Assembly (NCBI GenBank): GCA_016839515.1
Contig: JAEOUE010000163.1
Span: 1 to 47,684, forward strand
Source: Candidatus Hodarchaeum mangrovi
GTDB lineage: Archaea; Asgardarchaeota; Heimdallarchaeia; Hodarchaeales; Hodarchaeaceae
Direction of reading: 5' to 3'
DNA: 47,684 bases
Shown piece after piece: positions 8,052-43,142 of the stretch. The notes beneath the pieces are model-generated. The model did not search any database, was not told where the DNA came from, and was given only the letters and a program-made list of their open reading frames with translations. The position numbers and the translations under genes are program-made. The stretch's first letter is position 1. Each line of letters begins with the position of its first letter.

Positions 8052-8202
8052 AAGAATAATAAATTTTTCAAATTGCTAAAAAACTTCTATTTTTCCATCT
8101 CCACAGTCTCTAAGTTCCTATTATTTAATCCGAACAGTTTTAAAAATAACTAGCTTCACTGGGATTTGTATCTTCTTGTATAAATTCATGGTGAAATTGT
8201 CT

Positions 8203-9621
8203 ATGACATTTACTCAACGATTCATTCACCCATATCTACCTCAAACTGATGCTCAAATTAAGAGTATGCTTGATGAAATCGGTATCTCATCTATTGAAGA
8301 ATTATTTTCAGATATCCCCATAAATATTAGGTTTTCAAAAGAGCTTGATCTTCCTAACATGCATTCCGAACAAGAAACCATCAATAGAATACGAAAAATA
8401 CTTTCCAAAAATATAGAAGTATCAAAAGTCTCATCATTCCTAGGAGCAGGAATTTATTATCAAGCAATTCCAACCATAATAAATGCTATACTTAGTAGAT
8501 CAGAATTCTATACAGCATATACCCCTTACGCTCCAGAAATTTCCCAAGGTATGCTACAAGGGCTGTGGGAATATCAATCGATGATTGCTGAATTAACCCA
8601 ACTGGATTTTGTAAATTCATCGATGTATGACATGGCTACAGCATTAGGGGAAGCTGCCTTAATGTGTACAAGAACAAATGGAAAGAATGTTTTTCTTGTT
8701 CCTTCTGCAATTCAACCTGAGCGATATCAGACTCTTGAAACCTATGCTTCTGGAGCAAACATTTCTGTTATTAAATATCCATTTAATTCAAATACAGGGG
8801 CTACAGATATTTCTGCTCTAGAAGAGCTTTTAAAAATGTATAAAGGAAAAATTTCAGGTGTATATACTGAACATCCTAATTTCTTTGGCGTGATAGAGAC
8901 AAAAATTAATGAAATCAGTAAAATTGTTCATCAAAACGATGCTCTTTTTGTTGTAGGAATAGATCCAATCTCACTAGGAATTTTAAAATCCCCTGGAGAA
9001 TATGAAGCAGATATCGCAATTGGAGAAGGACAATCTTTGGGATTACCAATGAACTTTGGTGGACCTTTACTTGGGCTTTTTGCTGTGAAAAATGATATAA
9101 AATTATCAAGAACAATGCCAGGCCGAATTATTGGGTTGACTACTGAAAAAAAATCAGAGAAACGAGCATTTATTATGACTTTGCAAACCAGAGAGCAACA
9201 TATTCGTAGAGAAAAGGCAACATCAAATATTTGTACTAATAATGCTCTTTGTGCCTTAGCATCGGCAGTTTATCTTAGTACTATTGGAATGAACGGTTTA
9301 AAACAGCTTGCGAGGATAAATATATCAAAAACAAATTATTTGATTCAACAAATGAAAAAGATAAAAATTCTTAGTGTGCCTGTTTTTTCAAATCCTCACT
9401 TTCGAGAATTTGTTTTCCAACTTAATAATGAAAATTTACAAACAGATTTTGAAAATCATATGTTTAAAAACGACATTTATCTAGGATATTCACTCAAAAA
9501 GTTTTATCCAAATCTTGGAACATCTTATTTATCTTCTGCAACTGAAATGACACAATTATTTGATATTCAACATTTTATATCACAATTGAATAACTTTCAA
9601 AATATTACTAGAGGTGCCTGA
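8203..9621 (+). CDS. gcvPA: Glycine dehydrogenase (decarboxylating) subunit 1
   Basis: This is the N-terminal half (P1) of the split glycine cleavage P protein, about 472 residues. It begins with F.HPYLPQTDAQIKSML, equivalent to the family start YIPNT...ML, and has SSFLGAGIYYQAIP, YTPYAPEISQG, EHPNFFGV and a C-terminal E.HIRREKATSNICTN segment. P1 and P2 together form the PLP enzyme that decarboxylates glycine and passes aminomethyl to the lipoyl H protein. In-frame starts exist at 8176 (TTG) and 8188 (ATG). I prefer the ATG at 8203 because GGTGA at 8190-8194 is well spaced and the homologous region starts here. Its stop abuts the ATG of gcvPB directly, so the two are co-translated. Confidence 0.95.
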   Translation: MTFTQRFIHPYLPQTDAQIKSMLDEIGISSIEELFSDIPINIRFSKELDLPNMHSEQETINRIRKILSKNIEVSKVSSFLGAGIYYQAIPTIINAILSRSEFYTAYTPYAPEISQGMLQGLWEYQSMIAELTQLDFVNSSMYDMATALGEAALMCTRTNGKNVFLVPSAIQPERYQTLETYASGANISVIKYPFNSNTGATDISALEELLKMYKGKISGVYTEHPNFFGVIETKINEISKIVHQNDALFVVGIDPISLGILKSPGEYEADIAIGEGQSLGLPMNFGGPLLGLFAVKNDIKLSRTMPGRIIGLTTEKKSEKRAFIMTLQTREQHIRREKATSNICTNNALCALASAVYLSTIGMNGLKQLARINISKTNYLIQQMKKIKILSVPVFSNPHFREFVFQLNNENLQTDFENHMFKNDIYLGYSLKKFYPNLGTSYLSSATEMTQLFDIQHFISQLNNFQNITRGA

Positions 9622-11145
9622 ATGTATCGCCAAACTACTTGGGAAAAGGAACTTATTTTTGAGAAATCAAAACAAGGACGTATTGGATTCCTTGAAACTG
9701 ATCTTTCGGAGGAAGAAAATGAAATTTTTGACCAAGTCATTCAAACAATCCCTACAGACCTTATTAGAAATAAACCATTAGAACTCCCTGAATTGAGTGA
9801 ACTGGATGTTGTACGACATTATACTAGACTTTCTCAAATGAATTATGGGGTTGATTCTGGATTTTATCCTTTGGGTAGTTGCACAATGAAGTATAATCCT
9901 AAAATTTGTGATTTAGTTACCTCTTATCCGGAGGTTCAAAACATCCATCCTTATCAAGATCAAAATAGCATCCAAGGATGTCTCCAAATTATCTATGAAC
10001 TATCAAAATGGTTAGCAGAGCTTTCTGGGATGAATAAAGTAACTCTACAACCAGCTGCAGGAGCTCATGGAGAATATACTGGAGTTATGATTATTCGTAA
10101 ATATCATGAGATTAAAAAGAATCTATCTAAAAAGCTTGAAATAATAGTTCCTGATAGCGCTCACGGCACAAATCCTGCTACAGCCACCATGTGTGGATTT
10201 AAAACGGTTGTTATCCCTTCAAACGAAAAAGGCTGTGTTGATTTAGAAGCTTTACAATCGGCAGTGTCAGATCAGACAGCTGGTATGATGTTAACCAACC
10301 CAAATACTCTAGGAGTTTTTGAGTCCAACATAAAAGAGATTATTGATATAATACATGAAGTGGATGGATTAGCATATTACGATGGTGCCAATTTCAATGC
10401 GATCATGGGGAAGGTAAGACCAGGAGATATGGGGTTTGATATTGTTCATTTTAACCTTCATAAAACCTTTGCAACACCTCATGGAGGAGGTGGGCCAGGA
10501 GCGGGACCAGTGGGAGTAGTTGAACGTTTAAAACATTATTTACCAGTTCCTACAGTTGATTATAGTCCAGAGAAGGATGAATATTTTTTCCAATATGATC
10601 ATCCTTATTCAATTGGTAAAGTACGTAGCTATTTTGGTAATTTTTCTATCATCCTTAGAGCTTATGCCTACATTTTAAGATTAGGTAAGGAGGGATTACA
10701 ATCTGTTTCAGAAATGGCTGTTCTTAACGCTAATTACCTGAAAAGTATTACTCAAAAGATAAGAGGATTTTCTGTTCCCTATAGAGAAAATTCCTTTTGT
10801 ATGCACGAATTTGTTCTATCAGCCCGAACTTTAGGGAAAGAAACTGATATTTGTGCAAATGATATAGCTAAATTTCTACTCGATCATGGTTATCATCCTC
10901 CCACTATATATTTCCCTTTAATCATTCCTGAGGCTTTAATGATAGAGCCTACTGAAACAGAGCCAAAGGAAATGCTTGATGGTTACAAAGAGATATTAAA
11001 AAAAGTTTCTGATTACGCTTATTCTGGAAAACGGGATATTATCTTAGAATCGCCGAAAAATACTTCAGTTGGACTAATAGATGATGTCAAAGCAGCACGA
11101 AATCCAATACTTAGCTATCGGATGCTAAAAAAAAATAGAAGTTAA
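9622..11145 (+). CDS. gcvPB: Glycine dehydrogenase (decarboxylating) subunit 2
   Basis: This is the C-terminal, PLP-binding half (P2) of the P protein, 507 residues, the usual size. The Schiff-base lysine is K281 in NLHKTFATPHGGGGPG. Other family signatures are FYPLGSCTMKYNPK, HPYQ near 110-113, QPAAGAHGEY and the SAHGTNPA loop. The ATG follows the gcvPA stop without a gap, and GAGGTG at 9611-9616, inside the end of gcvPA, supplies the ribosome binding site. With GcvH (17995-18381) and GcvT (30108-31253) it can form a glycine cleavage complex. A run of nine T residues follows shortly after the stop. Confidence 0.97.
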   Translation: MYRQTTWEKELIFEKSKQGRIGFLETDLSEEENEIFDQVIQTIPTDLIRNKPLELPELSELDVVRHYTRLSQMNYGVDSGFYPLGSCTMKYNPKICDLVTSYPEVQNIHPYQDQNSIQGCLQIIYELSKWLAELSGMNKVTLQPAAGAHGEYTGVMIIRKYHEIKKNLSKKLEIIVPDSAHGTNPATATMCGFKTVVIPSNEKGCVDLEALQSAVSDQTAGMMLTNPNTLGVFESNIKEIIDIIHEVDGLAYYDGANFNAIMGKVRPGDMGFDIVHFNLHKTFATPHGGGGPGAGPVGVVERLKHYLPVPTVDYSPEKDEYFFQYDHPYSIGKVRSYFGNFSIILRAYAYILRLGKEGLQSVSEMAVLNANYLKSITQKIRGFSVPYRENSFCMHEFVLSARTLGKETDICANDIAKFLLDHGYHPPTIYFPLIIPEALMIEPTETEPKEMLDGYKEILKKVSDYAYSGKRDIILESPKNTSVGLIDDVKAARNPILSYRMLKKNRS

Positions 11146-28608: not shown

Positions 28609-29940
28609 TTAAATAATCTCGATAAAATCATAAGCTTGATGTAGAGAATCGAAGGCATAATGTAACTTTTGGAAGTCTGAACGAAAATCAGTGACTTCCT
28701 GAGCTATTTTGTCAGGATTAATTCTTTTTATTAAGAGCTTATGGAAGAACTCTGCTATTATAACCATATCACTTTCTTTCATTCCTAATCGTGTAATTTC
28801 CTGCGATCCAATACGGATTCCTCCTGGATTTCGATAATTACGCTTTTCAAGAATATCCCAAGGAAGAAGATTCCGATTTGCTACAATATGAGCTTTTTCC
28901 AATAACTGTTCAACTTCTGCACCTAATCCAATCGAATTCTGAAAGTTAGTTATATCTACCAATATTGTATGAGACTCTGTGAAATCTTTTTCGGGACACA
29001 CAACATGAATTCCCCGCTCATATAATGCCTGACCTAATGCTTTTGCATTTTTAATCACCTGTTTTGAATACTCTTTACCAAATTTTTTGAATTCTGCAGC
29101 TGCTATTGCTAAACCAGCAACATGCATTAGGTGATGATTTGACGTCATTCCTGGGAAAGCGGCTGTTTTAATCTTTTCTGCAAAATTATCATGAGCAGCA
29201 ACTACTATACCTTTTTGAGGTCCAGGAAACGTCTTGTGTGTCGATAATGTCATTGTGTCAGTTCCTTCTCTGATTGGATCCTGAAATTGACTACCAGCAA
29301 TCAATCCAGCAACATGTGCAGCATCATAATTGACATGAGTTCCAACCTCATGTGCGACAGGAGCTAATTCTTTTACCGGATGAGGAAATAGAAATACACT
29401 AGCACCAAATTGAAGTATTTTGGGTTTTATCTTACGTATTGCCTTAATTGACTCATCTACATCTATATTCAATCCATATCGATCGAAAGGTAAATAATCT
29501 ACATCAAGTCTGGAAACAGCTCCAGCAGTTCCACCAATGAAAGCACCAGTTTTAGCTTTATTTGGTCCAAAACTAATATGTCCTCCAACTGGAATAGATA
29601 TGGCAAGCATCTTATCATGGGCTTGAGCAAAGGCAGTATAAATGGTTAAATTTGCTACTACTCCAGAAATTGGCCGAGTATCAATGAAAGGTGCATCAAA
29701 AAGATCTTTCAATAATTTAATGCATAGATCTTCAATATCATCAAAATATTGATTACCTGGATATACACGTTCACCAATCCACCCTTCAGCATACCGATGT
29801 GATAGGTCAGTAATTGCTGCTTCCCTTACAGAAGGACTTGTTAAATTTTCACTTGCAATTAAAGGAATAGAGTTTTTCCAATATTCATGATGGGCTTTCA
29901 GAATATCTCGGATTTTTTGATGGTCAGGATCAATAGCCAT
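28609..29940 (-). CDS. glyA: Serine hydroxymethyltransferase
   Basis: The PLP enzyme interconverts serine and glycine with a one-carbon unit on a pterin carrier. Its 443 residues are typical for archaea. PLP lysine is K236 in LSTHKTFPGPQKG. Other signatures are LIASENLTS, RYAEG, ERVYPGNQYFDDIE (substrate loop), VNYDAAHVAGLI and a C-terminal RIGSQEITRLGM. It is divergent from gcvT, so SHMT and the T protein share the same promoter region. Together they link serine, glycine and one-carbon metabolism. The pterin may be tetrahydrofolate or a methanopterin; this cannot be told here. Confidence 0.97.
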   Translation of the reverse strand: MAIDPDHQKIRDILKAHHEYWKNSIPLIASENLTSPSVREAAITDLSHRYAEGWIGERVYPGNQYFDDIEDLCIKLLKDLFDAPFIDTRPISGVVANLTIYTAFAQAHDKMLAISIPVGGHISFGPNKAKTGAFIGGTAGAVSRLDVDYLPFDRYGLNIDVDESIKAIRKIKPKILQFGASVFLFPHPVKELAPVAHEVGTHVNYDAAHVAGLIAGSQFQDPIREGTDTMTLSTHKTFPGPQKGIVVAAHDNFAEKIKTAAFPGMTSNHHLMHVAGLAIAAAEFKKFGKEYSKQVIKNAKALGQALYERGIHVVCPEKDFTESHTILVDITNFQNSIGLGAEVEQLLEKAHIVANRNLLPWDILEKRNYRNPGGIRIGSQEITRLGMKESDMVIIAEFFHKLLIKRINPDKIAQEVTDFRSDFQKLHYAFDSLHQAYDFIEII

Positions 29941-29987
29941 TGCTTTATCACCTTCTTTTCCTACTGACTAATTAGGAACTGCTAAAA

Positions 29988-30000
29988 TTTTAAATAAATT
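29988..30000 (-). promoter_or_regulatory. Candidate TATA element of glyA
   Basis: An AT-only stretch (TTTATTTAAAATT on the minus strand) lies roughly 50 bases upstream of the glyA ATG at 29940. It is the strongest such element on that side of the 167-base divergent region. Confidence 0.35.
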
Positions 30001-30072
30001 CGCAAGAATCTTTTAAATGTATTATCCTGGGTATTTTTAACTAAAATAGTCTAAATCATTCTAGTTAATGCA

Positions 30073-30084
30073 ATTATAAAAATA
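30073..30084 (+). promoter_or_regulatory. Candidate TATA element of gcvT
   Basis: ATTATAAAAATA lies 24-35 bases before the gcvT ATG at 30108. This distance would give a leaderless or nearly leaderless mRNA, common in archaea. No ribosome binding site is visible before the ATG, which agrees. Confidence 0.4.
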
Positions 30085-30107
30085 ATGGTAATATGTTGTG
30101 ATAGACA

Positions 30108-31253
30108 ATGAGAACTCAATTGTATAATTGGCATTCAAAACATGGAGATTTGATAGAATTCGCTGGATTTGAAATGCCAGTAATGTTCTCCTCTATTAAG
30201 GAAGAGCATCTAGCAGTAAGAAATTCAGTAGGATTATTCGATGTTTCTCATATGGGAAGGATGTGGATTAGAGGTAAAGATGCAGAAAAGTTTCTAAATT
30301 TTTTAGTCCCTAGGGATCTTACAAAAACAAAAGTTGGAAGAGCATCTTATACCTTTATGCTAAACGAACAGGCTGGTTTCAAAGATGATCTTGTTTTTGA
30401 ACGAATCGAACAAAATAATTGGCTGATGGTCTGGAATGCAGGAAATTTAATGAAAATTAAGCACTGGATCAAAACTCAATATGAATTTGTAAATATATTT
30501 TGTCAGATAGATGTTAATCTAGTAGATATATCGACAACATCAGCTATGTTTGCTTTACAAGGACCAAAAGCCATTGATGTTCTGAAAAGAGTGTTTAATA
30601 ATTCAATCAATCTTCCTAACTCTTGGGGAGTAATTAGTATTACTTTTAATAACATAGATCTCATTATTTCTGGAACTGGATATACTGGAGAAGCAGGATA
30701 TGAAATAATTGTATTGAATACAACAAACAAAGATCCTTCAGCAGCTGAAATTATTTGGGAGCTCCTCCTAAATAATGGAGAGGAATTCAATATAAAACCA
30801 TGTGGATTAGGAGCACGAGATTCACTCCGCTTAGAAGCTGGATATCATCTATATGGTAACGATTTAAATGAGAGTCTTGATCCTATTACAGCAGGATTAT
30901 ATTTTCCCCCTTTTATACATATTTTGAAAGAAAATTTTGTCGGAAAAGCCGTGCTAGAGATTCTTGAAAAGAATAAACCAAAGAAAAAACGAATTGGGTT
31001 AATTGCGATTAAGAAAGGACCAAGTCCTAGAGGAGGACAAAAATTATATTATGAAGGAAATGAAATAGGGCAAGTATCTTCTGGTGGATTTTCACCATTA
31101 CTGGAATTGGGGATTGGGATGGGGTATATTGATGCTTCTGTTCCATCGGACTCTGGAATTGTTCAGTTTGAAGTTAGAGGAAAAATGCACGACGCACAAA
31201 TTAGGAATTTTCCCTTGTTTGACCAAAAAAAGTATGGAAAAAATAGAGGATAA
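30108..31253 (+). CDS. gcvT: Glycine cleavage system T protein (aminomethyltransferase)
   Basis: GcvT releases ammonia from aminomethyl-H protein and passes the one-carbon unit to a tetrahydropterin. The protein has 381 residues, near the normal length. Family motifs are the start HGDLIEFAGFEMPVMF, VGLFDVSHMGR, GTGYTGEAGYE (pterin-binding loop) and CGLGARDSLRLEAGYHLYGND; the acidic residue of this last motif is the catalytic aspartate of T proteins. The C-terminal barrel (FEVRGK near the end) is intact. It is divergent from glyA and convergent with the giant gene, with a 12-base gap. Confidence 0.96.
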   Translation: MRTQLYNWHSKHGDLIEFAGFEMPVMFSSIKEEHLAVRNSVGLFDVSHMGRMWIRGKDAEKFLNFLVPRDLTKTKVGRASYTFMLNEQAGFKDDLVFERIEQNNWLMVWNAGNLMKIKHWIKTQYEFVNIFCQIDVNLVDISTTSAMFALQGPKAIDVLKRVFNNSINLPNSWGVISITFNNIDLIISGTGYTGEAGYEIIVLNTTNKDPSAAEIIWELLLNNGEEFNIKPCGLGARDSLRLEAGYHLYGNDLNESLDPITAGLYFPPFIHILKENFVGKAVLEILEKNKPKKKRIGLIAIKKGPSPRGGQKLYYEGNEIGQVSSGGFSPLLELGIGMGYIDASVPSDSGIVQFEVRGKMHDAQIRNFPLFDQKKYGKNRG

Positions 31254-31265
31254 ATTTTCTTTCCT

Positions 31266-34200
31266 CTATCTCTTTCGTTTCTTTTCTTCTTTACCCGATT
31301 CACCCCCGATTGAACTTAATTCTGATAATGCATCAGAAAAAAGTTCAGCTAAATCAGGAGGTTTGACCTTTGTTTCTTTTGATAACTCCTTAGATTCCTC
31401 TTTAACTTCTCCATATGCTACTTTTGGAATATTCAATTCTTCAGAGCTTAAATATTGTTCATCCTCAGAAATTGCTCTGACTATTGAAGACAGAGAATCG
31501 GGAACTTCCTTTTTAAAGAGTGAATCTGCTGAAATCTTAGAACTTTCATCTTTTCTGGATTTAGAGATAATATTTTGTGTATCTGCAATTGCCTTTTCAA
31601 GAATTGCTATTTCAGGAATTGAATCGTCTCTTTCCTGATACTCACGTGGCTCTTCCACTTTTTCAGCTCCGAAAATCGGTTTAGAACTCTCCTCTTGAAC
31701 CATTCTTTCTAAGGGTGATAAATCTGGTGTATCTTTTTGTGTAATCTTCTTGGTTTCTGGAGAGAGAATTTCCTCTTCCTGTCCAGATTCTTTTCGCCAT
31801 AGCCGGCCAAATGAATCAACCTCCCATTCTCCTTCGTCAGGGTAATCCTGTAAAATTTCTTTTGGTTCACTTGGAGTTTGACTAGAGAATAATTCGGAGA
31901 TTTCGGAATCGCTTAATCCAGCTTTCATTTTCTTTTGAATAGGCTTAATTTCAGATTTCTTCACTTTTTCTTCAAATTGAGGTGAAAAAAGCTCACTAAT
32001 TTCGTCATCTGATAAACTTGCATCACTCACATCTTTCGATTTACTTATTGGGAGTTCAAGGATTTCATCATCGATTTTTGGACTTTTAACAACAGGTTTT
32101 TCAGTTGGAATCCCTTTCAATTCTTGAGTAGCTTCAAAAAAAGCTTTTTCTACTGAATCAAGAGAAGGAATTTTATCTTTCTCATATACTGGTTTTGAAT
32201 CAGTTGCTTGAGTTCCAATTTCATAACCTTTTATCACTTTTACAAATTCCTCATCTATCTTTTCCTCACTTAAATCTTCCGTCATATCAATCTTAGGGCT
32301 AACATCGGGTATAATAATTTGAGAAGTATCTACAATAATTGGTTTGGGTTTAACTCCAGATGAAGGTTCATCAGCTATCTGAGTTTCTATTTTTAAATCT
32401 GTTTCTACATCAATAATTAGTTCCTCTGGTTTTAGGACTCCTAACTGGCTCGCTCGTTTATCTAAAAGTGCTTTGAACTCTTTTTTATACTTTTTAGGAC
32501 TAATTCCGAGATTTTCAAGATATTTTTGAACTAAATCTGCCTTAATTTTATCTCTTTTTTCTTTTGCATCATTAAGAAGGTAAACTAAAATACCTGCCAC
32601 CTTTACATTTTGATTGATCATTGCACTGAGACGACAAATATAATCTAAATATGAATACGCAATTTTAAGATTATCATATTCAATAGCTGTTTCTATTAAA
32701 ATGTGAACAGTATTAAACAATGCATCTAGGTCTTCTAAACTTTCTAATTTTTCTAGGGTTTGTTGAAATGATCCAAGGGCTGTTGAATGATTATAGCGAA
32801 TTAGGTAACTTGTTAAGGCAGCAAGCAATTGAGCTTCATATTTTTCAGCGTTAAATTTCTTGCAAATTTGGATACCCCGTTTATAAGTTCGAATAGCTCT
32901 TTTAGGAGAGGGGTATTTGTCACCTAAATTAGTATAAACATTTACGATGCCTTCAAAATTATTTAATCGTCGATAAAATTCTGCAGATTGGTATGCGTAT
33001 TCAGATGCTAAATCTGGATTTTCAAATGCAACAAAAAGGGCAAATTTTTCTGTAATCTTCGCAGCTAGAAGATTACCCTCACTACCAAATCTTTTTGTAT
33101 CAGAAACCATTTGAAGAATTCGATCGGTATACTCTCGTGCAATTTCGAGTAATGAACCTGAAATTAATTCTTTTATAAATTGAAAAGCGTGAGGTAAAAC
33201 TTCAGAAATTGGCTTAGTGGTCTTTTCTAATAATGTAGCCATTAAACGGGAGGATGACGAAAATTGATTGACCCTAAAAAATTTGGGGGAATATTTTAAT
33301 ACCAATTCATCTCCAAAATTATTTTTTCCCTCTTCATATGGATCAAGGAGTTGATTTACAATAAGATCAGCATTTTCTTTTGATAAATTTTCGCTCTGAA
33401 GCATTAAATCATAGATCGGTTCTGCAAATTCAAAAAATTCTTCGATTTCTGGTTTCATAACTCTCTTGATAGTAAGCAATAATTCAGTATCAGGATATTT
33501 TTGGAGAATTGAAGAAAAATGCTTTTTTGTGACTTTTTTAAAATCTCCTTCCTGATGTCGGGTTGTAACAATTCGTTCAAATACTCTTATTGCAGCTTCT
33601 TTATTTGTTTCATAGGTCGTATTGAATATCATTTGGAGAAATTCAAGAGCTTTATCAGCTTTACTATCTTCTTCAAGAAGTTTTGCCATTTCAATGGCAA
33701 AGGTTGACGCAGACTCAGCATCTCCACGATCTAATGCATTTTTTGCGTAATTCTTGACAGCATTGATTGCTAATTTATACTCAGAATGACTTCTACCAAA
33801 ACGTATTATTAGATCGGTCATACGATTTGCATCTTCGTATTGACCATGTTCTAAAAATATATCACGATTCTTTTCTAAATATTTAATCACTTGAGATATA
33901 TCACCAAGTCGTTCATAATACCGAGCTGTCTGAACAATAAATAGATATGCATCTTGATACCTTTTCATTTCAAATTGTTTCTCTATCAAACGTGAGACAA
34001 TAGTTATACTCTTCTTAAAGTCCTGACGTGGTTCTAATTGTTTTAGGATCATATCAGTGATTTTTTGCGCCAAAATAACTGAGGACTTCAAAGATTCCTT
34101 TTGATAATCTATTAAACTTTCAATAGCTCCTTCCAAATCTCCCATATTATTATATGTTTCAGCTATTTTTTGAATAACCGCATAGAGAAGATCATAACGA

Positions 34201-36848
34201 TTTGAATTTTCAAATAAATGAGTTACAAATCTTCCCATATAATCTATTGCCCGAGTTTGGTCTTTATTTTTTATTTGAAGAGCAGTAAGCTGATCTAATA
34301 AGAAAGCTGCTCTATCTAGCTGATTTCCAAGAAGAAGTTCTTTTATATAATCCATTAATAGATCATAATCTGTTTCATCAGTCTGAAGCATCAGACTAGC
34401 ACTGTATTTCATATACTCAAAAATCATATCGAATTGTTTATGTTCTTTTAACTTATCAATAAAATTACGACAGAACTTAAGAACATCAGATATCTTTTTT
34501 TCTGTTAATAACTTACCAAGTTCAAGATTTATCATTTCTTGAGCAGTTAGAACAGCTTGACTTTGCAATAATTCATCTACATACTGAAGAACTATTTTTT
34601 CTCTCTTTTTTTGATCTTTAATAGTATCAAGAGCTGTTTGAATATAAACTTTTGAATGATCCTTCATTCCTAATTTTCCAAATAAATCTCCTAGAGCTAA
34701 TTGTTTTTCAATTCTCCTAGATTCATTCGAAGCATAAGCCTGATCTATTAAATTTACAACAAATTTTAAATAATCTCGTGCTGCATTCGATTCTTTTAGT
34801 TCTAAAAGTCCTTTTACAATCTCTAGGCTAAAATCAACAGCCTCTTCTATTTTGTTAAGTTCATAAAAGTATTTTATAGTCTTATTGCCATACTCACATG
34901 CTTTAATATGATTATCAGAATCCATTAAATAAGAAGAACCATCTTTTGCATATTCAAGAGCAATATCTTTTTTATTTTGGGTTTCAGAGATCAGAATTAA
35001 ACGATCAGCATATTTCGCAAATAATGGCTTATAATTATAAGTTTTAATTAACTTTAGAGTAGTTTCTAAGGATTCCATAAGCTCAAAATGAGCCTTTTTC
35101 TCATCTTGAGCATTAAACGCTTTATCCAAAAATTCACAAGCTATTTCTTGAAATTTTTCTATCTCTCTTGAAGATAATCCGATTTCTTCAGATTTACTAA
35201 GATATCGTATCAAGAAATGACCATATCGTAAAGAGTTTTCCCACATTACTACAGGTAGTCTTGCTTTTTCAAAAGAATCAACCTGCTTTTGAGCAAGATC
35301 AATTACCTTTTTTACATCTGAAATCTTAGTTTCATCTGCTAAAAAGAAATCCAAGGCTAATCCAATTAAATTAGCCGCACTCAAATTATTTTCCTGTTCT
35401 ATTAGAATTTTTATTGATTCATCCACGAATTCTAACGCATAGCTCGGTTCTAACTCTAATAATTCTTCAATTATTTCATCACGGAGCTTCCCTGCGTCGG
35501 AGGATTTTTTCTGTTCATCATAATAATAAACTAATTTTTTGCCAAATTGTAAAATTCCTTTAGCATTTCTTTCTTTTTGAAAACGTTTGTAGAGTACTTG
35601 AGTTACTTTAGTAGCTCCTTTCATATCTTTTTTGGATTCAAATTGTTCAATTACTTCAAGATAATGCCCAACCGCAACATTTATTATGATTTCTTCCATG
35701 GGCTTTTGAGAAAGTAACTCTATTGTCTGTAAGACTTTTTCAGAAGCATCATATAAATAACTAAATGAAATCTGGGGTATATCTTTATTGATTACCTTTG
35801 CGATTTCATCTTGATTAATCTTTACTTCGGTTAAAGGAGTTAATGAACCTGAAGGCAACCGAAATCGTAGATACCATTTTTCCATTTTTCTTAGAATAAT
35901 GCACACTGAGCCACCTGATTGTTCTATTTTCATTTCTTTCACAGGTAGAGGCTGCCCTTGACTTACAAATTCCTTAACTTTGACCAAGAATTTATCAAAA
36001 TCTTCAGCTTTTGTGTATTCTGAAGTATCTAATTCGGATAAATCTATAATAGATAAGTCATCTTCAACTATACTGCTCTCAACTTCTTGTTCTTCTTCTA
36101 TATAACTCTCAACTTTTTGTTCTTTCTGGATAGTATCTTCAGACATTGTAAATTCTTCAGGGTGTAGAATAATTTTCTCTATCTGTTCAGCAGAGTCATA
36201 AATGGCAGAAAAAGAGAGAAAATCGACCCCTGATTCAGTTATTAAAGTAACGATTTTATCTTGATTAATATTTTCCTTTGTAAAACTTTTTTTAATTAAT
36301 GGAGTGCTCCCTCTGAAAATAATTATTGCATATTTCCCTTCAACAGTGTAATAAATCTCGGCAAATCCCCCTTGGGAGTATGGCATCGTAAATTTACTAA
36401 GGAGTTTGTCAGTAACATCTATTTTGACTTTAGGTTCTAGTTTACTCTCTTCAACTATTTCAGTGGGTGTATCGCTTACCTCTTTATCCTTGTATTTATC
36501 CGATATTTTTCGTGATATTTCGTCCTTTGTAATTTTTGTCTCAACAGGATAAAATTCTTCCTCTACATGTAGTTTTGATGTCATTGATTTAATAGTTGAT
36601 AATAATAAATCAGCCACATCAAAAATTGCCGAAAAACTAAAAAATTCTACTCCTGCATCACTTAAAAGGTCAACCATTTTATCCTGATTTACTTGTGTGA
36701 CTGATATTGCGGTTGATTTTAGCTTTCTTTCATTCTGAAAGAACGTAAAAACATATTCATCTCGATTTAAATCCTTACGTACTTCACATTCGACTCCACT
36801 TGTTGAAGGAAGCTCTAAACGTACTGAATTTTCTTCTCGTGTAGCCAT
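31266..36848 (-). CDS. Giant 1860-residue alpha-solenoid protein with a triplicated N-terminal module
   Basis: This is a single uninterrupted frame. Residues 10-90, 150-228 and 303-380 are three copies of one module. Each copy has beta strands, then NQD (54-56, 195-197, 345-347), and then an SFSAIYD-like core followed by a short helix. Residues 385-1480 are uniformly helical with TPR-like alternation of 30-40-residue helix pairs. Residues 1490-1860 are acidic and low in complexity, with LSDDEISELFSPQ, LSDSEISELFSSQ and a related PDLAELFSDALSEL, then a basic KKRKR tail. No signal or membrane segment is present. It looks like a cytoplasmic scaffold. An AT element ATTATATAAGG at 36892-36902 and AGGGAT just before the ATG fit a normal start. 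Confidence 0.85.
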   Translation of the reverse strand: MATREENSVRLELPSTSGVECEVRKDLNRDEYVFTFFQNERKLKSTAISVTQVNQDKMVDLLSDAGVEFFSFSAIFDVADLLLSTIKSMTSKLHVEEEFYPVETKITKDEISRKISDKYKDKEVSDTPTEIVEESKLEPKVKIDVTDKLLSKFTMPYSQGGFAEIYYTVEGKYAIIIFRGSTPLIKKSFTKENINQDKIVTLITESGVDFLSFSAIYDSAEQIEKIILHPEEFTMSEDTIQKEQKVESYIEEEQEVESSIVEDDLSIIDLSELDTSEYTKAEDFDKFLVKVKEFVSQGQPLPVKEMKIEQSGGSVCIILRKMEKWYLRFRLPSGSLTPLTEVKINQDEIAKVINKDIPQISFSYLYDASEKVLQTIELLSQKPMEEIIINVAVGHYLEVIEQFESKKDMKGATKVTQVLYKRFQKERNAKGILQFGKKLVYYYDEQKKSSDAGKLRDEIIEELLELEPSYALEFVDESIKILIEQENNLSAANLIGLALDFFLADETKISDVKKVIDLAQKQVDSFEKARLPVVMWENSLRYGHFLIRYLSKSEEIGLSSREIEKFQEIACEFLDKAFNAQDEKKAHFELMESLETTLKLIKTYNYKPLFAKYADRLILISETQNKKDIALEYAKDGSSYLMDSDNHIKACEYGNKTIKYFYELNKIEEAVDFSLEIVKGLLELKESNAARDYLKFVVNLIDQAYASNESRRIEKQLALGDLFGKLGMKDHSKVYIQTALDTIKDQKKREKIVLQYVDELLQSQAVLTAQEMINLELGKLLTEKKISDVLKFCRNFIDKLKEHKQFDMIFEYMKYSASLMLQTDETDYDLLMDYIKELLLGNQLDRAAFLLDQLTALQIKNKDQTRAIDYMGRFVTHLFENSNRYDLLYAVIQKIAETYNNMGDLEGAIESLIDYQKESLKSSVILAQKITDMILKQLEPRQDFKKSITIVSRLIEKQFEMKRYQDAYLFIVQTARYYERLGDISQVIKYLEKNRDIFLEHGQYEDANRMTDLIIRFGRSHSEYKLAINAVKNYAKNALDRGDAESASTFAIEMAKLLEEDSKADKALEFLQMIFNTTYETNKEAAIRVFERIVTTRHQEGDFKKVTKKHFSSILQKYPDTELLLTIKRVMKPEIEEFFEFAEPIYDLMLQSENLSKENADLIVNQLLDPYEEGKNNFGDELVLKYSPKFFRVNQFSSSSRLMATLLEKTTKPISEVLPHAFQFIKELISGSLLEIAREYTDRILQMVSDTKRFGSEGNLLAAKITEKFALFVAFENPDLASEYAYQSAEFYRRLNNFEGIVNVYTNLGDKYPSPKRAIRTYKRGIQICKKFNAEKYEAQLLAALTSYLIRYNHSTALGSFQQTLEKLESLEDLDALFNTVHILIETAIEYDNLKIAYSYLDYICRLSAMINQNVKVAGILVYLLNDAKEKRDKIKADLVQKYLENLGISPKKYKKEFKALLDKRASQLGVLKPEELIIDVETDLKIETQIADEPSSGVKPKPIIVDTSQIIIPDVSPKIDMTEDLSEEKIDEEFVKVIKGYEIGTQATDSKPVYEKDKIPSLDSVEKAFFEATQELKGIPTEKPVVKSPKIDDEILELPISKSKDVSDASLSDDEISELFSPQFEEKVKKSEIKPIQKKMKAGLSDSEISELFSSQTPSEPKEILQDYPDEGEWEVDSFGRLWRKESGQEEEILSPETKKITQKDTPDLSPLERMVQEESSKPIFGAEKVEEPREYQERDDSIPEIAILEKAIADTQNIISKSRKDESSKISADSLFKKEVPDSLSSIVRAISEDEQYLSSEELNIPKVAYGEVKEESKELSKETKVKPPDLAELFSDALSELSSIGGESGKEEKKRKR

Positions 36849-39477: not shown

Positions 39478-39606
39478 GTTACCACCAAAATTAAATCTAT
39501 ATTCAAGGTAAAAATATTGAAGTATTAATAAGTAAGTAAACCAAAATTAGTAAAATTATGAAAGGAGAACCTCTATCAGCTAAAAAAAAGGGAGGTGAAA
39601 AAAAAA

Positions 39607-40890
39607 TTAGGGGGATAGATTTTGTTTTCTTAATGAATACATTGTTGCGGTCATTTTCTTCCGATTTACCTTTGAATAACTTTCTTGATCCAACATATCA
39701 GACAAAATGCTAGTATTTGTACTTTGGAGCTTTTCTAATATTTGCGAACCCCCTGTTTTCTCTATTCTTTCCTTGAGCTTCTGTTGAAACTCATTCATTG
39801 TCCTTTGAGCATTTGAAAATTGTCCCTGATCTGCAAAATTAATCACTTCTTGGTGAATAAAAACTGCTTCAAGCAAATGAGCATTTTCGATGATCTCATC
39901 ATCTTCCTGTGCTAGATAATCTTCATTTTCAGTGTAGATAATTTCACAACTAGAATGTGTTTTATCCTCTTTTGGTATTCCACTTCCAGGAATCCAACAT
40001 ACTGTAAAATCTAGGATTTTTTGCTTAGAACCTCCTAGAGATTTTGGCGGAACTACAACATCGAGGATTAGAATGATTTCTTTTTCACTTCGTAAATCAC
40101 CGAGCTTAGTTGAATTGGAAAAACGGGATTCATAGGGAACTCCCAGGACTCTATTAATTTTTAAGCCTTCAATTCCCTTCCATTGTACTTCTAAATTATA
40201 AGCAACTGTTTCAAGTAATCCTTCAAACTCTTGTGCAATATATTTCGGTATATCATCTGCTGTCTCTATAAAATAGAATGTACCACCTGCAGAATCAGCA
40301 ATAGTAACAAGAAGATCCTCATCAAAATCTTCTCCAACCCCAAATGTGCTAATGCATATTCCTTTATTATAGATCCCTTCTACTCCAGATTTTATCGTTC
40401 CTTTATCAGTTATACCTTCATTCGCTAATCCATCTGACAAAAGCAAGATCATATTTCTAAACTCCTTATTTTTCCCCATTTCAACTTGCTTTACTCCTTC
40501 CAAGATTCCTCCATATAAATTAGTTCGACCACGATCACAAACATTCCTTATTTTGTTGATTGTTGATGTTTGTGATATTAAAACTCCAGAGGGTATCAAA
40601 TTCTCAATTAAGTGGTCATAAACTGTAAAAGAAAATATATCTGTGTTTGTAAGATTATTGACTATAAATTCCACAGCTTCTTTAGCTTTTTGGAGTTTTT
40701 TTCCTCTCATACTTCCTGATCGATCAAGTACAATACCTAAATTCAAAAAATTTCGTTGTTTAACAGGATTAAAGTTAATTCCGGTTATTTTAAGCTGAAC
40801 AAAAAGGTGTGTATTTCCCGATGCTAGAGCATAGGGGGAACTTAGAGTAACTTCTAACTTAAAAGGTTTTTTATGTTTCATACCATTCAT
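39607..40890 (-). CDS. VWA-domain protein
   Basis: The 427-residue protein has a von Willebrand factor A domain at about residues 48-215. Its MIDAS motif is LDRSGS (D56, S58, S60), with a later threonine in DRGRTNLYGG and the aspartate in LLSDGLANEG. The N-terminal 47 residues form a short beta region typical of VIT/VWA proteins. The C-terminal 200 residues add a beta-sandwich and helices. There is no signal peptide or membrane helix, so it should bind metal and protein partners in the cytoplasm. The start may be codon 4 (MKHKK). It lies 12 bases after the wHTH gene upstream on the same strand and clearly belongs to that operon. Confidence 0.9.
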   Translation of the reverse strand: MNGMKHKKPFKLEVTLSSPYALASGNTHLFVQLKITGINFNPVKQRNFLNLGIVLDRSGSMRGKKLQKAKEAVEFIVNNLTNTDIFSFTVYDHLIENLIPSGVLISQTSTINKIRNVCDRGRTNLYGGILEGVKQVEMGKNKEFRNMILLLSDGLANEGITDKGTIKSGVEGIYNKGICISTFGVGEDFDEDLLVTIADSAGGTFYFIETADDIPKYIAQEFEGLLETVAYNLEVQWKGIEGLKINRVLGVPYESRFSNSTKLGDLRSEKEIILILDVVVPPKSLGGSKQKILDFTVCWIPGSGIPKEDKTHSSCEIIYTENEDYLAQEDDEIIENAHLLEAVFIHQEVINFADQGQFSNAQRTMNEFQQKLKERIEKTGGSQILEKLQSTNTSILSDMLDQESYSKVNRKKMTATMYSLRKQNLSP

Positions 40891-40902
40891 TTTATTTCTT
40901 CC

Positions 40903-41487
40903 TTATTTTGATCGCCTTTCAATTGATTTTTGTTCGTCATAAACTTTTTTACCCTTTTTTGTAGGCTTTATTTTTTTATTTGGCCTTCCAGGTTTGTTTT
41001 TTTTATAAATTTCTTTTTGATCACGGCTTCTTGTTGTTTTTGAATAATAATTTGTTTCTTCTATTAAATCTAATCTGTTCAACTCCCGTAAGCCTTGAAC
41101 AACTGTATTGGGGGATAATTGAGTGGAATCTTGAAGAGCTATAACGTTAATCCCCTCATTCAAGTTTATTTCTTCAAGTAAAATTCGTTGTGATCTTGAG
41201 AGCTGTGAAAACTCAGGATGAGACACCAGTTCCTTCTCTAAAATATTAAATCCCTCAGGGGTTAATGAGTATGATTTAGAATTTGGAGGATCTCTTGATA
41301 TCAGGCCTGCTAACTCCATTTCTTTAATTCTTCTATAAACGGTCGCAGTTGTTACCTTTCCCCTAAAAGAGTAAAAAGAACTCTCATTTATTTCTTGATT
41401 TATATCTGGGGCAGTTTTCTGAGGATTAGATTTAAGATAATTCAAAATTTCAAGCGTTCCTTTAGCAGACAATAAATCCAACATCAT
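40903..41487 (-). CDS. Winged-helix DNA-binding protein with basic tail
   Basis: The 194-residue protein has a winged helix in residues 8-75, with KVTTATVYRRIKEMELAGLI as helix 3 and the wing KSYSLTPEG. A second one follows at about 95-145 (RILLEEINLNEG, STQLSPNTVVQGLREL). A strongly basic tail, KKNKPGRPNKKIKPTKKGKK, contains the AT-hook-like GRP. It is an archaeal transcription regulator type. The first domain is similar to the N-terminus of the next protein (ARPP-1-like). The gaps of 12 bases to the VWA gene and 9 bases to the upstream gene show one operon, so it may regulate it. Confidence 0.85.
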   Translation of the reverse strand: MMLDLLSAKGTLEILNYLKSNPQKTAPDINQEINESSFYSFRGKVTTATVYRRIKEMELAGLISRDPPNSKSYSLTPEGFNILEKELVSHPEFSQLSRSQRILLEEINLNEGINVIALQDSTQLSPNTVVQGLRELNRLDLIEETNYYSKTTRSRDQKEIYKKNKPGRPNKKIKPTKKGKKVYDEQKSIERRSK

Positions 41488-41496
41488 AAATCATCC

Positions 41497-42831
41497 TTAG
41501 GTTTTTTGAGTGGGGTGAATTACCTCAGGAGGGGCTTGATTTATTATTTCTTGTCTTTGTATTAAATTTCGAATCTGATAACCACGAGGTATAGTTCTTG
41601 GAGATTTTCTCTCTTTTAAGATATCAATGTGTTTCTTAGAGGCATAGAAATGAGCTGGAAAATCATCAAACATAACACAGATACCCTCCCATTTGTTATC
41701 ATTGAATTTATACAGTGATCCACCTCCAGTTGCTTTGAGTGGTTTAACTTCTAAATCTTGAAACTCCTTCTTTAATATGTTATTTATATCTCCAGAAAAA
41801 CCTTTAGATATCTTTTCATGGAAAAAAACTTTATCAGTAAGAAATCCCTTCAATACTACTTCATTAAATTGAAGCCAAAGAGAATTAGACCCATAAATCT
41901 CTATTCCGAGTAATTTATCGTTATAGAAACATAACAAACCTACCTGATTGGGAATCATTAAATCAGGCTTTAACTTTTGAAATATTTCCGACATTTTTTG
42001 GCTTTTTTCTATCGATTTCTGTTGAATTTCGCGGTAGCTACTAGTAGGGGCTTCATCGATTCCAAGATTGAGAGCATCTGCAACCACTTCTATGGCATTC
42101 CAGACTGTTGACTGATCAGCTCCCATTGAAGCAACGTATCCCATTTGAGGGGTCATTCTTGTATCTGCAGATTTAAATTTAAATGTGGTTGCTTCGCCAT
42201 GTGAACTTTCGTAATTCCATCGCGATCGTTCAATACATCGCGCAGGTATTTTCAAGGGATTGTCCTTTGTACGACCTGATGGAATAATAATAGGTTCAAA
42301 AATGGTTCTGTCCTGTTTTCCTCCTTCAACCTGATGAAGGTAGGGTATGAGAATAGGTAATTCACTTAGATTTATTGCTTCCAACCATTCTACCGACTCA
42401 GCCCTCTCATTTTCTTGGATCCAACCCAATTCACGTTTCTCAGCTTCAGTAATTCCTAGCATTGAGAGGCTAGATTTTTGGATTATTGGATAAATTGTAA
42501 AACCTTCACAATATTTAGAGGATTCAAATTCATAGATTTCTGTAAAATTATATAAAATCTTCTTAAAACTCGCTTCTGTCATTTTATAATCACCATCTGG
42601 CTTAATATTCAATTTTTCTTTTAAATAAATTATAGATTTTTTATTATTAAATCGGACATACTTAATTAATTCTCTTTGTTCTAGAATATTTATAATTTGA
42701 AAGATTTTTGCAGTAGTTACTTTTTTATGCATCTTAAGAATAAGATATTCATTTAAATCATCAATAGATACTCTAGGATTTCCATTAAGGAATTCTAAAA
42801 TATCTAATGTGAGTTTTCCTTTTTGATTCAT
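41497..42831 (-). CDS. Winged helix fused to an ARPP-1-like (DUF6569-type) domain
   Basis: Numbering from a TTG at 42840 gives 447 residues; an ATG at 42831 (MNQKGKL) is as likely. Residues 10-75 form a winged helix with KVTTAKIFQIINILEQRELI, clearly related to the next gene. The rest matches the ARPP-1 pattern. It has PILIPYLHQVEGGKQDR at about 162-178, IIIPSG, then IPARCIERSRWNY (198-210), where the family has IPVSCVEQGRW. DQSTVWNAI (242-250) matches SDQ..VW, and LLGIEIYG matches its C-terminal strand. ARPP-1 has been described in ADP-ribose and rhodanese-phosphatase contexts, but its activity is unknown. It is the first gene of a three-gene operon. Assignment by motif memory. Confidence 0.7.
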   Translation of the reverse strand: MNQKGKLTLDILEFLNGNPRVSIDDLNEYLILKMHKKVTTAKIFQIINILEQRELIKYVRFNNKKSIIYLKEKLNIKPDGDYKMTEASFKKILYNFTEIYEFESSKYCEGFTIYPIIQKSSLSMLGITEAEKRELGWIQENERAESVEWLEAINLSELPILIPYLHQVEGGKQDRTIFEPIIIPSGRTKDNPLKIPARCIERSRWNYESSHGEATTFKFKSADTRMTPQMGYVASMGADQSTVWNAIEVVADALNLGIDEAPTSSYREIQQKSIEKSQKMSEIFQKLKPDLMIPNQVGLLCFYNDKLLGIEIYGSNSLWLQFNEVVLKGFLTDKVFFHEKISKGFSGDINNILKKEFQDLEVKPLKATGGGSLYKFNDNKWEGICVMFDDFPAHFYASKKHIDILKERKSPRTIPRGYQIRNLIQRQEIINQAPPEVIHPTQKT

Positions 42832-42840
42832 TTGGCTCAA

Positions 42841-43142
42841 AACAGGTTTTAATTAATTATACTTTTTGATAATTTATAAATTTAACTATTTCTATCAAAA
42901 AATATAATAAAAATTTAATGACTTTGTTTTAACAATTTCAAATCATATTCGATTAATTATCAAAAAAATTATTCTAGAAGATATAATTTAAGCCATAATT
43001 TAAAATTCTTTTATAAAATCCTTATAAAAAATACGTGAAAATGATATTCCTTATATTATGAAATTAAGATAAATTAGAATGATAAATTTCCTAAGTAAAA
43101 CATATAATCAAAGAAAAAAGGAAAGAAGTTCTATTCTCTCAA
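42841..43142. other. AT-only spacer with operon promoter
   Basis: 302 bases, among the most AT-rich of the window, between the wHTH-ARPP-1-like gene and the MFS gene. Both flanking genes are on the minus strand. The core ATTTATAAAT at 42872-42882, some 41-51 bases from the ATG at 42831, is the best promoter candidate for the operon. No coding potential was seen. Confidence 0.45.
42872..42882 (-). promoter_or_regulatory. Candidate TATA box of the wHTH-ARPP-1/wHTH/VWA operon
   Basis: ATTTATAAAT is a near-palindromic TATA element upstream of the operon. It lies 32-42 bases from the TTG at 42840 and 41-51 from the ATG at 42831. It would give a very short leader. Confidence 0.4.

What the first reader, a model, noticed from the sequence alone, without database searches (positions are those of the whole stretch)
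39607..42840. Uncharacterised operon: wHTH-ARPP-1-like, wHTH and VWA proteins, with AIM24 family gene downstream
Three genes with gaps of 9 and 12 bases must be transcribed together. The first fuses a winged helix to a domain with the ARPP-1 signatures GGKQDR, IPARCIERSRW and DQSTVW. The second is a winged helix with a basic AT-hook-like tail. The third carries an intact MIDAS VWA domain. An AIM24 family gene follows 129 bases on. ARPP-1 has been noted in ADP-ribose and rhodanese-phosphatase contexts but its biochemistry is open. A DNA-binding form together with a VWA partner looks like a sensor-regulator or conflict-type module.
Basis: partly seen in the sequence, partly recalled or inferred. 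Interest (0 to 1): 0.75.

Follow-up and report, generated by a model that had tools for sequence, protein, structure and literature searches.

The report
Self-regulating Asgard operon with ArnB-like protein
Three co-transcribed genes in a Hodarchaeal (Asgard) genome encode two winged-helix DNA-binding proteins, one fused to the poorly understood ARPP-1 domain, plus a relative of the Sulfolobus signalling protein ArnB; a DNA motif almost confined to the operon's own promoter suggests a self-controlled signalling switch, not an antiviral system.

Summary
Three minus-strand genes (gaps 9 and 12 nt) encode wHTH-ARPP-1 (PF20208, E=8.5e-33, conserved C and Q intact), a protein with two winged helices, and a VWA protein with intact MIDAS. 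New points: (1) The "AT-hook tail" is the wing of a second wHTH. (2) The VWA protein models (pLDDT 87) as the three-domain ArnB/ArnE fold (PDB 8s05, TM 0.80). (3) The conserved core is wHTH2+VWA, adjacent in 13 genomes of two families; ARPP-1 is fused to the first wHTH in one lineage, while sister species keep a three-gene operon without ARPP-1. (4) An 18-bp motif, AATTAyACTTTTTGATAA, flanks the TATA element; in 12 genomes of the genus it occurs 8 times (<=1 mismatch), 7 of them upstream of this operon's orthologues. (5) AIM24 is not linked; no ADP-ribosylglycohydrolase was found in this genome and no FHA (ArnA) protein in the genus. (6) Independently, Loki-type genomes pair ARPP-1 with a different wHTH gene (32 loci). 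Best reading: an autoregulated ArnB-type signalling/transcription switch with ARPP-1 as added sensor or enzyme. Protein-DNA binding, protein contacts and ligand are inferred. "Sensor-regulator" is supported; "conflict module" is not.

The parts
41497..42840 (-). Gene 1: wHTH-ARPP-1 fusion protein (447 aa; possible ATG start at 42831)
   Evidence: PF20208 8.5e-33; model pLDDT 86
42571..42840 (-). N-terminal winged helix, residues about 1-90, paralogous to the first wHTH of gene 2
   Evidence: 32% over 71 residues in the window; profile of three fused N-termini hits protein 2 at 2e-22
41647..42531 (-). ARPP-1 domain; invariant Q176, R178, C202, Q243, W247, G386
40903..41487 (-). Gene 2: tandem winged-helix protein (194 aa); invariant T49, YRR 51-53, GRP 167-169 in the second wing
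39607..40890 (-). Gene 3: ArnB/ArnE-type VWA protein (427 aa): VWA domain inserted in a beta-sandwich, then helix bundle; intact MIDAS
42855..42872 (+). Operator-like site 1, AATTATACTTTTTGATAA, between TATA-like element and gene start
   Evidence: top hit of the whole window with a matrix built without the window (20.3 bits)
42892..42909 (-). Operator-like site 2, TATTATATTTTTTGATAG, upstream of the TATA-like element
   Evidence: second hit of the whole window, 14.0 bits
42873..42881 (-). TATA-like element (ATTTATAAA in gene orientation) between the two sites
   Evidence: read from sequence; not tested statistically
39582..39606 (-). Two oligo-T tracts after the VWA stop codon, possible archaeal terminator before AIM24
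   Evidence: read from sequence

Best explanation
An autoregulated signalling and transcription switch. The tandem-wHTH protein binds asymmetric 18-bp sites flanking the TATA element of its own operon and limits its transcription. The ArnB-type VWA protein is its partner and sets its activity through the MIDAS face or the C-terminal helix bundle, in the way ArnB works with ArnA in Sulfolobus, but with a wHTH DNA-binding partner in place of the FHA/zinc-finger protein. In this lineage a third component, a wHTH paralogue, carries an ARPP-1 domain that senses or processes a sugar- or nucleotide-type ligand and feeds that signal in. Shown by sequence: the domains, the conserved wHTH2-VWA adjacency, the ARPP-1 fusion, the motif and its near-exclusive location. 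Inferred: that these proteins bind the motif, repression, VWA-wHTH contact, any phosphorylation, and ligand sensing.
For: wHTH2 directly upstream of VWA in all 13 genomes of two families where both flanks could be read, down to about 28% identity. Motif discovery 54.6 against 40.8 +/- 1.5 in shuffles; the leave-one-out matrix ranks the two promoter sites first and second in the whole window; 7 of 8 near-exact copies in 12 genomes lie upstream of this operon's orthologues, control 0. The motif is shared by ARPP-bearing and ARPP-less operons, so wHTH2 (or the first wHTH), not ARPP-1, is the likely reader. ArnB fold. No FHA match in the genus while ArnB's known partner is an FHA protein. ARPP-1 is repeatedly next to winged-helix genes.
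Against: No experiment. No direct evidence of VWA-wHTH contact or phosphorylation; ArnE, the ArnB paralogue, is said to lack the C-terminal phosphosites of ArnB, and our protein could be like it. G009 has lost VWA and most of the N-terminal wHTH but kept ARPP-1, wHTH2 and the motif, so VWA is not indispensable. The motif is weak in three of the four f6 genomes. Several genus members are incomplete MAGs, so absences (FHA, ARG) are not proof.
Confidence: 0.55

Rival explanations
1. ARPP-1 is the working enzyme (cysteine chemistry on ribose or another sugar) and the winged helices only control its dose; VWA is an assembly or chaperone factor.
For: Invariant C202 and Q residues; the published proposal that ARPP acts on ribose moieties, perhaps by covalent cross-link; in Loki-type genomes wHTH and ARPP-1 are separate genes, so ARPP-1 need not be part of the DNA-binding protein.
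Against: Here ARPP-1 is fused to a winged helix, and sister species keep the wHTH-wHTH2-VWA operon without ARPP-1 in it, so the operon does not exist for ARPP-1 alone.
Confidence: 0.25
2. A biological-conflict (antiviral) module centred on ADP-ribose, as in published ARG-ARPP systems.
For: ARPP-1 was defined in such systems; autoregulated small operon with patchy distribution (7 of 14 genomes of the order have the ARPP protein).
Against: No ARG match in this genome; where relatives have ARG it is far from ARPP-1. No effector, nuclease, or phosphatase domain in the operon; no PADLOC hit for ARPP or VWA proteins; neighbours are housekeeping genes.
Confidence: 0.08
3. The AIM24 gene belongs to the operon and the unit works in membrane or mitochondrial-type biogenesis.
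For: AIM24 adjacent in the window, L010 and L011.
Against: Not adjacent in L009 or L013 nor in the ARPP-less operons L124-L128; oligo-T tracts between VWA and AIM24.
Confidence: 0.04

Closest known systems
ArnB and ArnE (vWA2) of Sulfolobales, PDB 8s05 and 5a8j
   Same: Same three-domain architecture over nearly the whole protein (residues 10-394; TMt 0.80 and 0.74), intact MIDAS, encoded beside its presumed regulatory partner.
   Different: Partner genes encode winged helices, not the FHA/zinc-finger ArnA; no FHA match in the genus. About 18% identity. Heimdallarchaeota were already said to hold ArnB-like products, but not this operon.
ARPP-1 in ARG/rhodanese-phosphatase systems and in ARPP+WYL, ARPP+HIRAN and ARPP+deacetylase pairs (PMC9503650)
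   Same: Same domain with the conserved cysteine and glutamine; like the ARPP+WYL pair, linked to a transcription factor.
   Different: Fused to a winged helix and in one operon with tandem wHTH and VWA; no ARG. The paper's text does not mention a wHTH fusion or a VWA partner (its figures and supplements could not be read).
Bacterial VWA of the same fold (PDB 4fx5, E. coli YfbK) and eukaryotic Sec23/Sec24 core
   Same: VWA plus beta-sandwich plus helix bundle (4fx5 TM 0.73; Sec24 TMq 0.58-0.60).
   Different: No coat or vesicle context; likeness of fold only.

Membership tests
ARPP-1 (PF20208) | Profile match over the curated cut-off and the whole domain | tested here: met
   114 bits against 27, profile 3-294 of 297
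ARPP-1 (PF20208) | Absolutely conserved cysteine and glutamine | tested here: met
   C202, Q176 and Q243 present and invariant in 32 sequences
ARG-centred ADP-ribose conflict system | ADP-ribosylglycohydrolase coupled to ARPP | tested here: not met
   No PF03747 match in the genome (91% complete); distant from ARPP-1 in G008 and G010
ARG-centred ADP-ribose conflict system | Rhodanese-phosphatase, NADAR, Macro or REase partners in the operon | tested here: not met
   Pfam of operon and flanking genes
ArnB/ArnE-type VWA proteins | VWA inserted in beta-sandwich, then helix bundle | tested here: met
   Model pLDDT 87, full-length match to 8s05
ArnB/ArnE-type VWA proteins | Intact MIDAS | tested here: met
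   D56, S58, S60, T123, D153 invariant
ArnAB system | FHA/zinc-finger partner ArnA | tested here: not met
   No PF00498 match in any of 12 genus genomes; S. acidocaldarius control positive
ArnAB system | Multi-site phosphorylation of the C-terminal helix bundle | not testable with these tools
   Needs phosphoproteomics
VWA-MoxR or TerY-type systems | MoxR AAA ATPase or TerY partner genes beside VWA | tested here: inconclusive
   None among the Pfam-scanned genes around the window operon; neighbours in relatives were not all scanned

The most novel reading that the evidence does not exclude
Hodarchaeales and a related family use an ArnB-type (Sec23/24-core-like) VWA protein to gate winged-helix transcription factors directly, and one lineage has added ARPP-1 as a covalent or ligand sensor: an undescribed archaeal signalling architecture.
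Probability: 0.35. Interest if true: 0.7.

Novelty: new variant of a known kind. Interest (0 to 1): 0.55.

Why it matters
How ArnB-type VWA proteins reach transcription is open: S. islandicus work reports promoter binding by ArnA-ArnB (PMC10470591), while the 2026 structural work found none and suggested other DNA-binding proteins (PMC12852372). Here such a VWA protein is locked by gene order to a DNA-binding protein, with a defined and nearly unique DNA motif, so the question can be tested with three recombinant proteins and one 80-bp DNA. It also gives the biochemically open ARPP-1 domain a possible DNA read-out.

Tried and rejected
ARPP-1 model against PDB and BFVD: no match at E<=0.001, so no fold-based guess of activity. 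First ARPP alignment too diverse for a collection scan; a narrower one worked. Viral contigs and phages: no ARPP relatives (the viral scan needs conserved peptide patterns, so distant ones could be missed). AIM24 as a member: rejected. AT-hook reading: rejected. Common origin of the Hodarchaeal and Loki-type wHTH partners: not supported (profile comparison 11% probability). Two-mismatch motif hits as a wider regulon in this genome: 8 against 4 in the reversed control, so no regulon claimed. Earlier papers on a wHTH-VWA unit in Asgard archaea: none found in the held library.

Full report
Observation. Pfam confirms ARPP-1 (8.5e-33), VWA (1.4e-16) and AIM24 (4.3e-57). One ARPP-1 copy was found in the genome. 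Same-genus contigs match records titled Heimdallarchaeota or Hodarchaeota in length and position (CP070760, CP070695, CP070665 and JAEOT records), so the window is taken to be Hodarchaeal.

Anatomy. Protein 1 starts with a winged helix homologous to the first winged helix of protein 2 (32% over 71 residues in the window; profile E=2e-22) and not clearly related to the Loki-type partner. ARPP-1 follows, with Q176, R178, C202, Q243, W247 and G386 invariant in 32 Asgard sequences; the published family analysis stresses an absolutely conserved cysteine and glutamine. The AlphaFold model is good (pLDDT 86) but finds no significant relative in PDB or BFVD. Protein 2 has two winged helices; T49, YRR 51-53 and GRP 167-169 are invariant among 14 relatives, and GRP lies in the wing of the second domain. 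Protein 3 models at pLDDT 87 as the ArnB/ArnE fold: 8s05 E=1.3e-26, TMt 0.80; then 4fx5, 5a8j and Sec24/Sec23. The family profile aligns to ArnB over residues 10-394.

Comparative anatomy. The order wHTH-ARPP, wHTH2, VWA is kept in G008 and G010, and in G003 where the contig ends inside ARPP. Five sister species (G001, G004-G007) have instead wHTH (122-133 aa, no ARPP-1), wHTH2, VWA at another place, and two of them (G004, G006) carry a lone ARPP-1 elsewhere. Four genomes of another family (f6) have wHTH2, VWA. So wHTH2-VWA is the core, adjacent in 13 genomes, and ARPP-1 was fused to, or lost from, the first gene. The VWA tree separates ARPP-bearing operons (100/99) from ARPP-less ones (94/97); the window's own ARPP-1 is a long branch whose place within the genus is unsure. 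G009 kept ARPP-1, wHTH2 and the DNA motif but has no VWA beside them, and only a remnant of the N-terminal wHTH is readable upstream of its ARPP-1. The ARPP protein is present in 7 of 14 genomes of the order, so the unit is patchy; several genomes are incomplete.

DNA motif. Upstream regions share AATTAyACTTTTTGATAA (score 54.6 against 40.8 +/- 1.5 for 12 dinucleotide shuffles of 8 regions). A matrix built without the window puts its first (20.3 bits) and second (14.0) hits in the whole window at 42855 and 42892, flanking a TATA-like element. In 12 genomes of the genus the pattern with at most one mismatch occurs 8 times: 7 upstream of the operon's orthologues, 1 inside an unrelated ORF, reversed control 0. 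L009, L010 and L132 have two sites 35-36 bp apart in the same orientation; the window has two in opposite orientation. In f6 the motif is clear in L132 and weak in L129-L131. The site is not a palindrome, which would fit one protein reading it with two different winged helices; that step is inference.

ARPP-1 elsewhere. Of 84 non-redundant Asgard ARPP-1 loci, 32 have a homologous wHTH gene directly upstream on the same strand (gap -4 to +93 nt), and this gene family was seen at no other offset. Many of these promoters carry two or three TTTTTA(C/T)(A/T)GTAAAAA repeats after a TATA-like element. In ten Loki-type genomes the perfect palindrome TTTTTAC(A/T)GTAAAAA was found at five places, four of them at the ARPP operon. 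So ARPP-1 is tied to winged-helix partners in at least two unrelated-looking ways.

Function. ARG, the defining partner in the published ARPP conflict systems, has no match in this genome and lies far from ARPP-1 in G008 and G010. No ARPP relatives turned up in viral contigs or phages. FHA proteins, ArnB's partners in Sulfolobus, were not found in the genus. PMC10470591 reports promoter binding by S. islandicus ArnA-ArnB; PMC12852372 reports none and suggests other DNA-binding proteins. The most economical account is an autoregulated ArnB-type switch with wHTH2 as DNA-binding partner and ARPP-1 as an added sensor or enzyme. Binding, repression, protein contact and ligand are untested.

Noticed in passing
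L045, L048, L051, L052, L054-L056, L085, L087, L090, L091, L104 and others: Two-gene wHTH-ARPP-1 operons in Loki-type genomes with repeated palindromic operator-like sites TTTTTACAGTAAAAA after the TATA-like element.
   Followed up: partly
L230:1501 (G118:C39:7830): The same perfect palindrome stands before a gene for a 499+ aa protein away from any ARPP-1; possible regulon member.
   Followed up: no
L011:8885-10376: G009: VWA gone from the operon and the wHTH part of ARPP reduced to a remnant, yet ARPP-1, wHTH2 and the motif remain; a run of N lies nearby.
   Followed up: partly
L067-L070, L073: Short 272-aa ARPP-1 proteins directly downstream of an alanine-racemase/D-serine-dehydratase-like gene.
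   Followed up: no
L181, L188, L191, L196, L207: Bacterial ARPP-1 genes with a response-regulator-like gene (249 aa) directly upstream on the same strand (domain read by eye).
   Followed up: no
window 31266-36848: A very large (1860 aa) repeat-rich protein, conserved at 52% identity in G003 (L013); function not examined.
   Followed up: no
window 8176-11145 and 28609-31253: Glycine cleavage P-protein in two genes, and SHMT beside a T-protein gene in opposite orientation.
   Followed up: no
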